Below are positions 31,907 to 37,235 of a stretch of 64,000 nt of DNA, in pieces. The notes below the pieces were generated by a model. The model was not told where the DNA came from. It searched no databases and was given only the letters and a program-made list of their open reading frames with translations. The position numbers and the translations under genes are program-made. The DNA comes from Pilatotrama ljubarskyi (lineage: Eukaryota > Basidiomycota > Agaricomycetes > Polyporales > Polyporaceae), in assembly GCA_022385805.1 (NCBI GenBank), contig MU277729.1, positions 139,245-203,244 of the forward strand. Reading direction: 5' to 3'. The stretch's first letter is position 1; every line of letters starts with the position of its first letter.

Positions 31907-32702
31907 ATGAGTGTCCTCAGGCCCTTCCGCGCTACCGATATGTTCAAGTTCAACCACATGTGCGTGCATGTACACCTATTCCAACGCCCGAGCGGCCGTC
32001 ACTGACGCATGGTACCCTGCTCAGAAATCTCGATCTGTGGACGGAGACGGTGTGTCAATGTCCTCATATCAGGTATGGCGGTGCCTGACAAAAGGGACAT
32101 GCAGTATGCTATCAACTTCTACCTGGGTTACTTCTCCCGCTGGCCGGACATGTGTGCCGTCCAGGAGACACCACAGGGTCGCATCATGGGCTACGGCAAG
32201 TCTGGCTCCCCATCTCCCCACCCATCGCCCTCTTATACGTTTGCAATCCCTGGCAGTCATTGGCAAGGCTGAAGGCGCAGGACCGGAGCGGCACGGGCAC
32301 GTCACCGCGCTCAGCGTCGCACCCGAGTACCGCCGACTAGGGCTCGCGCGCAAGTTCATGTCCTGGCTCGAGCAGGTGTCGGACGAGAACTACCGCGGCT
32401 ACTTCGTCGACCTCTACGTGCGCTGCGTCAACACCGACGCGATCAAGATGTACGAGAGCTTCGGGTACAGCGTGTACCGCCGCGTGAAGGAGTACTACAG
32501 CAATCTCGGGCTGGGGCTCAATCCGCGGGACGAGGAAGACGGGTTCGGTGCGTGCTCATGTTATGTGCTCTTCGAGGGAACTCGCTCACGGAGGATTGCC
32601 GGATGTGCAGACATGCGGAAGCCATTATCGCGAGATCCTATGCGACGGTCTGTACGAGCGAACGGCCGAGACATCACCGTCAGCGCACACGAAGTGCCCT
32701 GA
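31907..32702 (+). CDS. NAA20: NatB N-terminal acetyltransferase catalytic subunit
   Basis: Five exons (31907-31959, 32025-32049, 32105-32195, 32257-32547, 32611-32702) give 183 residues, the normal size for Naa20/Nat3. The start MSVLRPFRATDMFKFNH and the strand NLDLWTET are typical. The GNAT core has HVTALSVAPEYRRLGLA (acetyl-CoA-binding RRLGLA loop) and FVDLYVRCVNTDAIKMYES. The C-terminus DMRKPLSRDP is strongly conserved. NatB acetylates Met-Asp, Met-Glu and Met-Asn starts on the ribosome. The third intron begins with GC (GCAAGT at 32196), the only way to connect MGY to VIGKAEG in frame. Confidence 0.93.
32196..32256 (+). other. GC-AG intron in the NatB gene
   Basis: The donor reads G|GCAAGT and the acceptor TGGCAG|TC. 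No GT donor nearby keeps the frame; with GC the protein reads MGYVIGKAEG as in homologues. Confidence 0.8.
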
Positions 32703-33167: not shown

Positions 33168-34674
33168 TTAGTCGTCGTCTTCGTCGGTGAGCTCTTCGCC
33201 GGGTCTGACTCCTAGGTGTTGCTCGAAGCCCGGTTTGCGCGCCCATGATCGGCCGTCGGTATATGGCTCGATGCGGAGCGGTACGACGAGGGTGTATGAT
33301 GGGCTGCGCCCCCTTTTATCAGCGTATGCACAACGGAGGAGTTTTCCGCAAAGCACTCACTATCCGGTCGGACCCACGTTGAAGAACAGCTCGAGGTTCT
33401 TGCGCCACCTGCGAAGACCGTTTGTGAGGGACCTCGCACGACTTCCGACGGCTTCTATACGCACCCTAGGTCATAGCAGTTCACGAAGGTCTACGTGGAA
33501 CAGATTAGCCAACACATCACAACCGATAGAAAGATATGCACAAACCTCTCCTCGCTGCTTCGCCACCTTACGATACTGCTCGTGATCCTGGGTCTCTACA
33601 GACGTCTCACCGGAGGCGACCATGTAGAGGTGCCAGCCGGCCATCGCGGAGACAGCGAGGAAGAGCACGACCGCGAGGATGTACTCTAACAAGAATGCCA
33701 CGGGAGGTACGAGGTAAGGCCATGGCTCCTATCACGGCGGTGAGGATGTGGTAGGGTGACCAGAGGAGTCGGAACGAACGTTGAACCAGCCCAGTCCTAG
33801 GAGGACGTGTCTCCAGCCGAATGCAGCGTAGCAGAAGGACGCGATGACGAGATACACCCTGGACAGGAACGTGAGCCACGGTTGAGCCGGACAGGTCAAT
33901 ATGTAGACGCACATGAACAACACGAAGTGTCGCTCGTTATACAGGCCCACGCATTGGTTGATCCCTGTGCACGTATATTAGGATCGGAGCACTCATACAA
34001 CCCAACTTCGCGCACTCACACTAGACAGCGATTAGCCTTAACTGTAACCTGAGGAGCGTGCGCGAAGAACTCACAGGACAGTGGTGGTCATATTTCAACA
34101 CGCAGCGGTTGCATATCCTGCAGTGATGGGACCTCTCACAGACGCACCTCAGCATGTCCCGCCCCTATTCACGCCAAGCACGGTCGAACGACGTACCTCT
34201 GGTCTCATCTCCCCGCACTTCCTGCACTTCGACGTCGCCGCCCTGGTGACCTGCACGTCTTCGGACCACCGCACGCCCGTCAGCTGCCGTCCCCTCGCAG
34301 AATCCCGCCTTCTTGCCCATAGCACCCCCCTGCCGTGCGCAGGTGGAGGGTCGGGAACGAAGCCTGGGGAGATAGTGCAGACGTAGAAGTAATGCGCGAA
34401 GAGGTTGAGCGCGATGAGAAGGCACACGGGCGTCGTGAGCCATGGCCACGGTAGGGAGGGCAGGATGACGTCGACTGCCACGACCAGTCCCATCAGCTAT
34501 GTCTTGTCTTCGTATTCCTGAGGAGTACGCACGGAAGCAAAAGAGACCGGTCGAGAGCAAGACGACTGCGAGGGTGACGAAGACGGGCCCCGCTGCGCCT
34601 GTGAGTCTGTCCCCAGCGCGTTCGAGCCATTTGAAGCAGCGGAAGACTTGTCGGGTGCACCATTGCGGTGCCAT
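33168..34674 (-). CDS. DHHC palmitoyltransferase with a one-nucleotide exon
   Basis: Ten exons: 34674-34533, 34474-34197, 34134-34075, 34020 (single base), 33964-33913, 33858-33780, 33728-33546, 33490-33465, 33408-33361, 33303-33168. They total 1,005 nt, 334 residues. The cysteine-rich domain reads [11 protein letters not shown], then [18 protein letters not shown], then [14 protein letters not shown]; the DHHC cysteine carries the acyl group in S-palmitoylation of target proteins at membranes. Four hydrophobic segments flank it (two before, two after), and the tail ends [10 protein letters not shown]. The tryptophan codon after DHHCP is split: T from the one-base exon, GG from the next exon. 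All nine introns are 51-62 bp. Confidence 0.88.
34020..34020 (-). other. one-nucleotide exon (T) between two introns
   Basis: The upstream intron 34074-34021 (54 bp) starts GTGAGT and ends CTGTCTAG; the downstream intron 34019-33965 (55 bp) starts GTGAGT and ends GCACAG. Each has a CTAAT branch site 12-16 nt before its end. The single T is needed to build TGG of DHHCPW. Confidence 0.75.
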
Positions 34675-35167: not shown

Positions 35168-37235
35168 TCACCTGCCCTTGCCGGGAGTAGTAGCGCGGCG
35201 CGGTGTGCCTGGAGGCTTGCGGGGAGTCGGAGGTGGTACGCCTGTTAACCGCCTCTCCACCATTCCTGCAGATGCGTCTGTCGCACGCTGGACCTCTCGG
35301 ACGGCACGGCGTGCTGCGTCGCCCACCTGGGTCTGAGGACGCTCAGCATCTATTCGCGACAGGGCACGAAGGAGATCTTGGGGATCCGTCGCAGGCGGGC
35401 GAGGAAGGGAGGGCGGTATGTATGAGGAGAGGGCGGTGGGATCGGCATGACCAGGTGGAAGCGCGGGCTGGGATCGAGAGACGATAGAGATGTTGAGCAG
35501 CGCGAATCGTCGATCTAGGTCCGCTTCGGCTACCCGAGTGGTCTGCAGGGCTGCGTTCGCGAATGTGTGTACACGATCCATCTGCAATGGGTCAGGACGG
35601 CGCCGACCAACAGAAATGACATGGCGCACCGTGTATTCCAACTGCTGGAGTCGACTGCTGAGCGCAATCCTCTTGGACGCGTCCCCAAAGACAATCTCTC
35701 TTGCGCGATCCACGCTACCGCTTGATAGGAACTGTTCGGGTAGGTCTCGCCTTTCCACGTCCCAGTCGTCCAGCTCTTCCGCGGATGCCCGCTCCTTGCC
35801 CTTAGACCTCCACGCGGCCAAGGTTCGCTTCCGCTTCTCCATCTCCGCTTGCACGGACTTCTTATGCGCGTCGTACGAGTCTGATAGCTCTTTCCAAGCC
35901 TCCGCTTCCTGCTTCGACCTGTCGTTCGCAATCCCATTGAGCGTTCGAGCGGCCAATGCGAGAGATGGTGGGAAACGCACTGTTGTATATGGGCGTTGAA
36001 CCGCGCTTCGCGCGCCCTGTTCTTCACGTTCTGCTCGTTCTCCCTCAAAGGCCGTCCATCTCCACTCTGTGACCCGGCCCCGCCATAGACATTCGTGTCC
36101 ACCTTCCTCTCCGCAACCATCCGTATCAGACTCTCCTCCGTCCGCTTCAGGATGTCGGCTTGAGCTGGTGATAGCGGTGGTGGGTCCTTGCCAGAATTTG
36201 TTGACTTTCGTCTTGACGAGGATGCTTGAGGGCCCTGATCCGCAAGCTCGTTCATGGCTCGGTTCGCGCACCATATGAGCAGTTGTCGTGCGCGTTGAGG
36301 TTCTGGAAGTTCGCAGTCGATGTGCTTGAAGAAGCTCGACACGGAAACGGAGGTATGGGGATGTGCTATGCCGCATTAAGCACGCAGTCGACCGTGCACA
36401 AAGAGGGACATGCCACTCACAGATCACGCCGGTGGTCTCAAAACTAGAACTGATGCGCTTACCGCGACTGACGGAGCTCCTTCTCCTGTGGCCTGTCTCT
36501 CCTCGCATGATCTTGTTCTTCTCAATTTGTGGTGTCTCTTGCTGGGCTATTGGTACGACCGTGTCGATGTTCCGACGGGATGACGACCCGGGTGGTCGTG
36601 ACGAGCGCGGAGGGAATTCGAAGTCTCCAGATACGGTGCCAGCAACCTGCTCAGCCGCCTGCGAACGTCGTCGTAGCGTGTCCGTCTCCGACTGCATCTG
36701 CCGCACGTCCTCCTCCAGCTCGGGCTCAGCACGCGTGGTCGCATACACGTCCCGATCCTTCGCCTTGCCAACAGCCCGCGACGAACCGTCTGCGCGCAGC
36801 TTTTTGGAGGGCGGCTTCGAAGGCTGTGGCTGGACAGAGGGCTGACAAGAGGTCGCGCGAGACTCTGATGGCAGAGGTTCAATCTGAAGCGTGCGGTTTG
36901 CCGGCGCTGGAGCGCGTACAATCACAAGCCCTCCTGGCTGCTCCTCGCCATTGACTGTTGGCACGCCTCTTCCGTATCAGCGACGCGTCGGCTCGTACGC
37001 ATACGGGACACTCACGCTTGCGCTTATTAGACGGACCAGCCTTCGAGTTCTAGCATAAAGATTACAGCGCGCATGCATGGCATTCATCCTTCGGACGCAC
37101 CTCTCGCTTGAGCTTCTTGCCCGCCGTCGCTGCAAGTGGATTGGCATCGTCGGTGGCTTTCCGTTTGGACGGCTGTGGCTGGCTGGGTATCATGGGTACT
37201 TCTAGTCCGATGGTAGTCGTGCGCGAGCCGCTCAT
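35168..37235 (-). CDS. mis13: Mis12 kinetochore complex subunit Mis13/Dsn1
   Basis: Five exons (37235-37101, 37049-37016, 36966-36421, 36365-35981, 35918-35168) give 616 residues. The diagnostic block is SVSRGKRISSSFETTGVI, continued across an intron by SHPHTSVSVSSFFKHIDCELPEPQ and RARQLLIWC, typical of the Mis13/Dsn1 domain. An acidic and basic low-complexity N-terminus with nuclear-localisation-like KR clusters precedes it; a coiled-coil-rich C-terminal half follows (KELSDSYDAHKK, EMEKRKRTL). The protein links the inner kinetochore to the Ndc80 and KNL1 complexes. It is transcribed divergently from the cytochrome c gene. Confidence 0.9.

What the first reader, a model, noticed from the sequence alone, without database searches (positions are those of the whole stretch)
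33965..34074. One-nucleotide exon in a DHHC palmitoyltransferase gene
Two intron-like units of 54 and 55 bp lie back to back around a single T at 34020. Each has a GTGAGT donor, a CTAAT branch site and an AG acceptor, and both match the 51-62 bp size of the other seven introns in the gene. With the T, the coding length is 1,005 nt and the protein reads DHHCPWINQCVG, the invariant motif. If the whole 110 bp were one intron, the frame would shift right after DHHCP and the last third of the protein would be lost. Single-base exons are extremely rare; the case I know of is plant APC11.
Basis: partly seen in the sequence, partly recalled or inferred. Interest (0 to 1): 0.88.

Follow-up and report, generated by a model that had tools for sequence, protein, structure and literature searches.

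The report
Conserved one-nucleotide exon in mushrooms
A gene for a protein-lipidating enzyme in a polypore fungus contains an exon that is a single letter long, and comparison with related proteins suggests that the same one-letter exon is old, really used, and overlooked in nearly all the gene models of mushroom-forming fungi that were examined.

Summary
On the minus strand two complete GT-AG introns (54 and 55 nt, both GTGAGT...CTAAT...AG) flank a single T at 34020. With T the nine-intron gene gives a 334-aa DHHC palmitoyltransferase; without it the frame breaks after DHHCP and 174 of 334 residues are lost. In an enumeration of splice choices, DHHCPWINQCVG arises only through a one-nt T exon, and only T34020 has GT donors on both sides.

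The decisive evidence is comparative. Of 125 Agaricomycete gene models, 2 read DHHCPW, one (P0209) lacks the region, and 122 fail at or around that residue. All 22 ortholog rows on short, transcript-sized contigs read DHHCPW. So do 53 of 53 named orthologs from outside the class. The simplest reading is a real, spliced one-nt exon, present through Agaricomycetes including Cantharellales and missed by gene predictors.

One-nt exons are a known kind: plant APC11 and VPS55, Fusarium CYP621A. This is a new and apparently older fungal member. No RNA reads of this fungus and no DNA of relatives could be examined.

The parts
33168..34674 (-). DHHC palmitoyltransferase gene, start codon to stop codon, 10 exons and 9 introns, CDS 1005 nt, 334 aa
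   Evidence: Spliced model; Pfam DHHC (PF01529) 113.4 bits; orthologs up to 86% identical over 99% of the length. The start codon is the likely ATG and is not proven.
34075..34134 (-). Exon 3, ending in GAC CAC CAC TGT CCT (DHHCP, with the DHHC cysteine)
34021..34074 (-). Intron 3, 54 nt, phase 0 (after the Pro codon of DHHCP): GTGAGT donor, CTAAT branch site, CTAG acceptor
   Evidence: Sequence and enumeration
34020..34020 (-). Exon 4: one nucleotide, T (first base of the TGG codon for Trp161 in DHHCPW)
   Evidence: comparative evidence
33965..34019 (-). Intron 4, 55 nt, phase 1: GTGAGT donor, CTAAT branch site, ACAG acceptor
   Evidence: Sequence and enumeration
33913..33964 (-). Exon 5, beginning GG ATC AAC CAA TGC GTG GGC ((W)INQCVG)

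Best explanation
T34020 is a real, constitutive one-nucleotide exon. Shown by sequence: two complete short introns lie back to back with one T between them, and that T (or the same solution at two other T's with GC donors) is needed to restore the invariant DHHCPW motif and the second half of the enzyme. Shown by comparison of proteins: gene models of the orthologs throughout Agaricomycetes break at the same residue, while transcript-sized contigs of the same clades read it correctly. Inferred: the spliceosome treats the two introns by intron definition and removes them one after the other. The acceptor of the first and the donor of the second are one base apart, so they can hardly be engaged at the same time. 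Either order leaves the other intron's signals intact and gives CCT-T-GG. Inferred: the tandem arose once before the divergence of the sampled Agaricomycetes. It may persist because loss of one intron by recombination with cDNA would need exon sequence between the two introns, and one base offers none, so the pair could only be lost together. Errors (T skipped or an intron retained) give truncated products that lack the second half of the enzyme.
For: Enumeration: solutions with one or two introns (GT/GC donors, AG acceptors, 20 nt or more) between the fixed flanking exons were listed; three give DHHCPWINQCVG, all with a one-nt T exon, and only T34020 has GT donors for both introns. Pfam DHHC scores 113.4 bits with T and 40.3 bits (profile positions 6-38 of 133) without it. 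Orthologs: 2 of 125 Agaricomycete gene models read DHHCPW exactly (one more, P0209, lacks the region); 22 of 22 transcript-sized rows do; 53 of 53 named non-Agaricomycete rows do. The damage sits at this junction: indel in 105 of 120 models against 0 of 22 transcript-sized rows. At six of the other seven junctions 0, 13, 2, 0, 2 and 2 of 120 models are affected (transcript-sized rows 0 of 22 at five of them, 1 of 22 at the last); the seventh (residue 204) varies naturally in both groups, 88 of 120 and 17 of 22. 56 of 125 models read DHHCPVR before [IV]N, which is CCN|GTRA-GT read as P-V-R; this window would give the same through donor 34070. V follows DHHCP in 82 of 125 models, as expected if the GT of the donor is read as coding. 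In 119 of 125 the residue before [IV]N is R, G or W, all compatible with an exon that starts GG. Transcript-sized rows are scattered over the tree like random labels: 20 label changes, shuffled mean 20.9. The strict tandem pattern is unique in the genome.
Against: No RNA read of this fungus and no DNA of any relative could be examined; relatives' intron structure is inferred from how their protein models fail. 'Transcript-sized' is judged from contig length and an unbroken ORF, not from a library record: 12 of 22 rows lie on contigs under 1.5 kb, too short for a gene laid out like this one, while the longest is 4.0 kb. Three of the 22 (P0123, P0125, P0134) sit outside the main 134-row clade on long branches, so their membership of the class is unsure. 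Two gene models (P0019 Taiwanofungus, P0032 Tricholomella) read DHHCPW, so the tandem may have been lost there, or those models may contain the exon. Eight models lose a longer stretch around the residue and say little about the exact junction. The donor after T lacks the usual G at -1.
Confidence: 0.94

Rival explanations
1. A single 106-nt intron (34070-33965) with donor A|GTTCTT is used, so that the enzyme reads DHHCPVRINQCVG. This is what 56 of 125 Agaricomycete gene models predict.
For: It keeps the frame and is the commonest reading in the gene models examined.
Against: Donor GTTCTT is poor and overlaps the perfect GTGAGT. It replaces the Trp that is present in 22 of 22 transcript-sized rows and 53 of 53 named non-Agaricomycete orthologs, and in the five solved DHHC sequences aligned. 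None of the 22 transcript-sized rows reads VR.
Confidence: 0.03
2. Assembly or sequencing error: the 110-nt stretch is one ordinary intron and a base is missing or extra nearby.
For: Single-base indels are common assembly errors and no reads could be inspected.
Against: The same problem recurs at the same place in 122 of the 124 Agaricomycete gene models that contain the region, and the internal branch-AG-T-GTGAGT unit is not expected by chance (2 of 20,000 strict shuffles).
Confidence: 0.01
3. A spliceosomal twin intron (stwintron) or a zero-length recursive splice site: one intron nested in a splice signal of another, all 110 nt removed.
For: The two introns are consecutive without a normal exon, as in the stwintrons described from fungi (abstracts of PMC6616335 and PMC12403724 in the listing).
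Against: Each intron has its own complete donor, branch site and acceptor, and removal of all 110 nt gives the frameshift and the 197-residue product.
Confidence: 0.02

Closest known systems
One-nt exon of plant APC11 (PMC4674806, part 1 of 3 of the text read; PMC8831610, passages read)
   Same: One base flanked by AG and GT, needed for the frame, constitutive, present in most land plants and missing from annotations
   Different: Unrelated gene and kingdom; the Arabidopsis exon lies 333 nt into a 422-nt interval, here two introns of 54 and 55 nt abut it; the plant case is proven by cDNA and constructs
One-nt exon of plant VPS55 (PMC8831610, passages read)
   Same: Conserved one-nt exon with a GTRAGT donor, missing from reference annotations
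   Different: In VPS55 some lineages make transcripts with and without it; here no alternative use is shown
One-nt exon of Fusarium CYP621A P450 genes (PMC12940212, parts 1 and 2 of 3 read)
   Same: Fungal nuclear gene, one base in a conserved motif, a short interval between exons, wrong in almost all gene models the authors list
   Different: Base G between AG and GT in one ascomycete genus (20 orthologs in the abstract, 24 genes in the text), confirmed by SRA reads; here base T, a basidiomycete gene, signs of it throughout Agaricomycetes, and no reads inspected
Stwintrons of fungi (PMC6616335, PMC12403724: starts of abstracts in a search listing)
   Same: Two introns without a normal exon between them
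   Different: Here no splice signal is interrupted and one base is kept

Membership tests
Single-nucleotide exon (APC11/VPS55/CYP621A kind) | Exactly one base between an AG acceptor and a GT donor, each intron with its own signals | tested here: met
Single-nucleotide exon (APC11/VPS55/CYP621A kind) | The base is required for the reading frame and a conserved motif | tested here: met
Single-nucleotide exon (APC11/VPS55/CYP621A kind) | Conserved in orthologs | tested here: met
   Protein level only: 122 of 124 gene models that contain the region fail at it, 22 of 22 transcript-sized rows are correct. DNA of relatives was not available.
Single-nucleotide exon (APC11/VPS55/CYP621A kind) | Transcript of the same locus contains the base | not testable with these tools
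   No RNA reads held for this fungus; transcript-sized ortholog rows are indirect evidence
Stwintron | An internal intron interrupts a donor, branch or acceptor element of an external intron | tested here: not met
   Both introns carry complete, uninterrupted elements
Recursive (zero-nt exon, AG|GT) splicing | Acceptor directly followed by donor, nothing kept | tested here: not met
   AG|T|GT; dropping T breaks the frame
DHHC palmitoyltransferase | PF01529 domain with the Cys-rich region and DHHC catalytic motif | tested here: met
   113.4 bits against a cut-off of 28.7, residues 129-251
DHHC palmitoyltransferase | Palmitoylation activity | not tested
   Not computable here

The most novel reading that the evidence does not exclude
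A one-nt exon fixed in the common ancestor of Agaricomycetes has been kept in nearly every lineage since, because the tandem introns cannot be lost singly, and it makes expression of this palmitoyltransferase depend on strictly sequential splicing; skipping or retention, both of which truncate the enzyme behind its DHHCP motif, could act as an off-switch.
Probability: 0.2. Interest if true: 0.82.

Novelty: new member of a known kind. Interest (0 to 1): 0.64.

Why it matters
My searches of the open-licence library showed no one-nt exon in a basidiomycete gene, and this one shows signs of presence through a whole fungal class. It sits in the catalytic motif of an enzyme, so 122 of the 124 Agaricomycete gene models examined here that contain the region appear to carry a false sequence at or around that motif. 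It gives a naturally replicated system for asking how a spliceosome handles two splice sites one base apart, and whether such tandems are evolutionarily locked in place.

Tried and rejected
Single-intron readings that keep the frame with the real acceptor: two GT donors (34079, giving DHHW without the catalytic Cys; 34070, giving PVR) and four GC donors (34112, 34106, 34103, 34061); none keeps DHHCPW. Two other one-nt T exons (34014, 33991) need GC donors and are the less likely form of the same explanation. The enumeration went no further than two introns between the fixed flanking exons.

DNA of relatives: the search for related loci with P0018 in viral contigs and genome contigs found no relative. 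The pattern for DHHCP followed by GTRAGT found 0 in viral contigs and 7 stretches in genome contigs; none of the 7 shows a DHHC-like frame upstream. The DNA pattern for K[FY]DHHCPW-like codons found 0 in viral contigs. Plasmid records gave no match.

Paralogs: of five further DHHC genes seen in the genome (a lower bound by the tool's own note), four (L001, L002/L004, L003, L008) read DHHCxW in one unbroken frame; the fifth (L007) gave no readable motif.

Rows dropped before counting: P0218-P0250 (33 more distant DHHC enzymes, among them PFA4, ZDHHC16 and ZDHHC6 by name) were left out as not orthologous. P0209 is counted in the 125 but lacks the region. The first two protein searches list only the best 120 of 500 and 284 hits, and one search scored only the 7998 candidates sharing most words.

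Paper PMC5587772 could not be read (not held).

Full report
WHAT IS IN THE SEQUENCE. The gene lies on the minus strand, from an ATG at 34674 to a stop at 33168. Spliced with nine GT-AG introns (58, 62, 54, 55, 54, 51, 55, 56 and 57 nt) it gives a CDS of 1005 nt and a 334-aa protein that matches the Pfam DHHC palmitoyltransferase family with 113.4 bits. The closest named ortholog is from Cubamyces lactineus (86% identity), followed by Trametes species, so the genome probably belongs to a polypore near Trametes; its name is not given. Introns 3 and 4 are 34074-34021 and 34019-33965; between them is one base, T at 34020. Both begin GTGAGT and both contain CTAAT before the AG; three of the other seven introns contain CTRAY.

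IS THE ONE-NT EXON FORCED? I listed solutions with one or two introns (GT or GC donors, AG acceptors, at least 20 nt) between the fixed upstream exon and the exon for INQCVG. Three give DHHCPWINQCVG, and all three contain a one-nt T exon. Only T34020 has GT donors for both introns; the other two T's need a GC donor. The sequence itself explains why: the Trp codon TGG is made of GG at the start of the downstream exon and a T that is next to neither exon (CCT is followed by GTGAGT, and GG is preceded by CAG). Keeping intron 3, with or without intron 4, gives 177 residues, and keeping intron 4 alone 187. Without T the Pfam match falls to 40.3 bits and covers profile positions 6-38 of 133.

IS IT CHANCE? 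In 20,000 dinucleotide shuffles of the inner 85 nt of the 110, a unit branch-AG-T-donor arose 2 times with strict and 7 times with relaxed signals, and 15 times with any base in place of T. A strict tandem pattern was found once in the 33.1-Mb genome, at this place, and its backwards control never. In the 64-kb window the relaxed unit also occurs only here.

THE COMPARATIVE TEST. Two protein searches gave 142 distinct rows, and a third gave five more Agaricomycete models. I divided them into 125 gene models (rows with an NCBI source) and 22 rows with only jgi, lgn or ena as source, whose longest contigs are 1.1 to 4.0 kb. Twelve of the 22 lie on contigs shorter than 1.5 kb, too short for a gene of 1507 nt laid out like this one, so they are most likely spliced transcripts. 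The outcome is sharp: 22 of 22 transcript-sized rows read DHHCPW; 2 of 125 gene models do (P0019 Taiwanofungus camphoratus and P0032 Tricholomella constricta). Of the other 123, P0209 lacks the whole region, which leaves 122 failures among 124 models with the region. Of all 125, 56 read PVR, 12 read PG, 32 give other readings that end in G, 5 others that end in R, 9 keep W with an insertion or a deletion, and 9 are unclassed; these last are P0209 and eight that lose a longer stretch around the residue.

WHY THE FAILURES SPEAK. PVR is what a predictor gets when it reads CCN-GTR-A as coding, takes the next GT as donor and joins A to GG. It therefore indicates that those genes, too, have GTRAGT directly behind the Pro codon (phase 0) and an exon that starts GG (phase 1), two ends that cannot be joined in frame. 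This window would be misread in the same way through donor 34070. V follows DHHCP in 82 of 125 models, and the residue before [IV]N is R, G or W in 119 of 125, as an exon starting GG demands. As a control I counted indels at every intron position of the gene: 105 of 120 models at this junction and 0 of 22 transcript-sized rows; 0, 13, 2, 0, 2 and 2 of 120 models at six other positions (transcript-sized rows 0 at five of them and 1 of 22 at the last); and a naturally variable loop at residue 204 in both groups (88 of 120 and 17 of 22). Poor gene models in general do not explain this.

WHERE IN THE TREE. Failing models include Cantharellales (Clavulina, Rhizoctonia, Ceratobasidium), Ramaria and Sphaerobolus, Hymenochaetales, Russulales, Boletales, Polyporales and Agaricales (order names for genera are recalled). 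The transcript-sized rows are scattered through the same tree like random labels (20 label changes against a shuffled mean of 20.9; quick tree); 19 of the 22 lie in the main clade of 134 rows, and three (P0123, P0125, P0134) lie outside it on long branches, so that their class is unsure. Outside the class, 53 of 53 named orthologs (52 from Tremellomycetes, Ustilaginomycotina and Pucciniomycotina, by recalled taxonomy of the genera, plus one Mortierella) read DHHCPW, as do 17 of 17 unnamed rows of the same search. That sample was selected by length, and I saw no Dacrymycetes, Auriculariales or Sebacinales among the names. The most economical reading is one gain before the sampled Agaricomycetes diverged. 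In the same genome four of five other DHHC genes seen read the motif unbroken.

HOW IT MOST LIKELY WORKS. Shown: signals, frame, motif, and the protein-level conservation. Inferred: each 54-55 nt intron is recognised across itself (intron definition, general knowledge of fungal splicing, recalled). The two splice sites one base apart cannot well be occupied together, so the introns are removed in sequence. Either order works, because after the first event the other intron still has all its signals (CTAG|TGG or CCTT|GTGAGT). Also inferred: loss of one intron through cDNA recombination needs exon sequence on both sides, which a single base cannot provide, so the pair is locked together. Regulation by skipping is possible but nothing here shows it.

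RELATION TO WHAT IS KNOWN. One-nt exons are established in plant APC11 (PMC4674806, part 1 of 3 read) and VPS55 (PMC8831610, passages read), both conserved and missing from annotations. In fungi, a 2026 paper reports one in Fusarium CYP621A, with reads, and calls it the first for a fungal gene (PMC12940212, parts 1 and 2 of 3 read). A one-base exon is also reported for the placozoan mitochondrial cox1 gene (PMC5436844, title in a search listing). The present case is a member of the nuclear kind, in another phylum and gene, apparently spread over a whole class. My searches of the open-licence library showed no description of it; papers outside that library were not searched. It is not a stwintron, because no splice signal is interrupted, and not a zero-nt recursive site.

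LIMITS. No RNA reads for this fungus and no DNA of relatives could be read. The transcript nature of the short contigs rests on length and unbroken ORFs. The age of the tandem and the reason for its persistence are inferences.

Noticed in passing
Proteins P0019 (Taiwanofungus camphoratus) and P0032 (Tricholomella constricta): The only 2 of 125 Agaricomycete gene models that read DHHCPW; either intron loss or a correctly modelled one-nt exon.
   Followed up: no
window 34135-34196 (-), intron 2 (residue 140, RPE|RSH): Second weak spot of public gene models: indels in 13 of 120 against 0 of 22 transcript-sized rows. In this window the intron ends in GAG and has no CTRAY.
   Followed up: partly
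window 31911-32702 (+): Neighbouring open frame with a GNAT acetyltransferase domain (PF00583, 1.8e-10).
   Followed up: partly
window 35168-36976 (-): 602-codon open frame (stop to stop) upstream of the gene, no Pfam family at E 0.001.
   Followed up: no
Protein P0143 (Marasmius tenuissimus): 842-aa public gene model that joins this enzyme to a PF20149 domain; perhaps two genes fused by the annotation.
   Followed up: no
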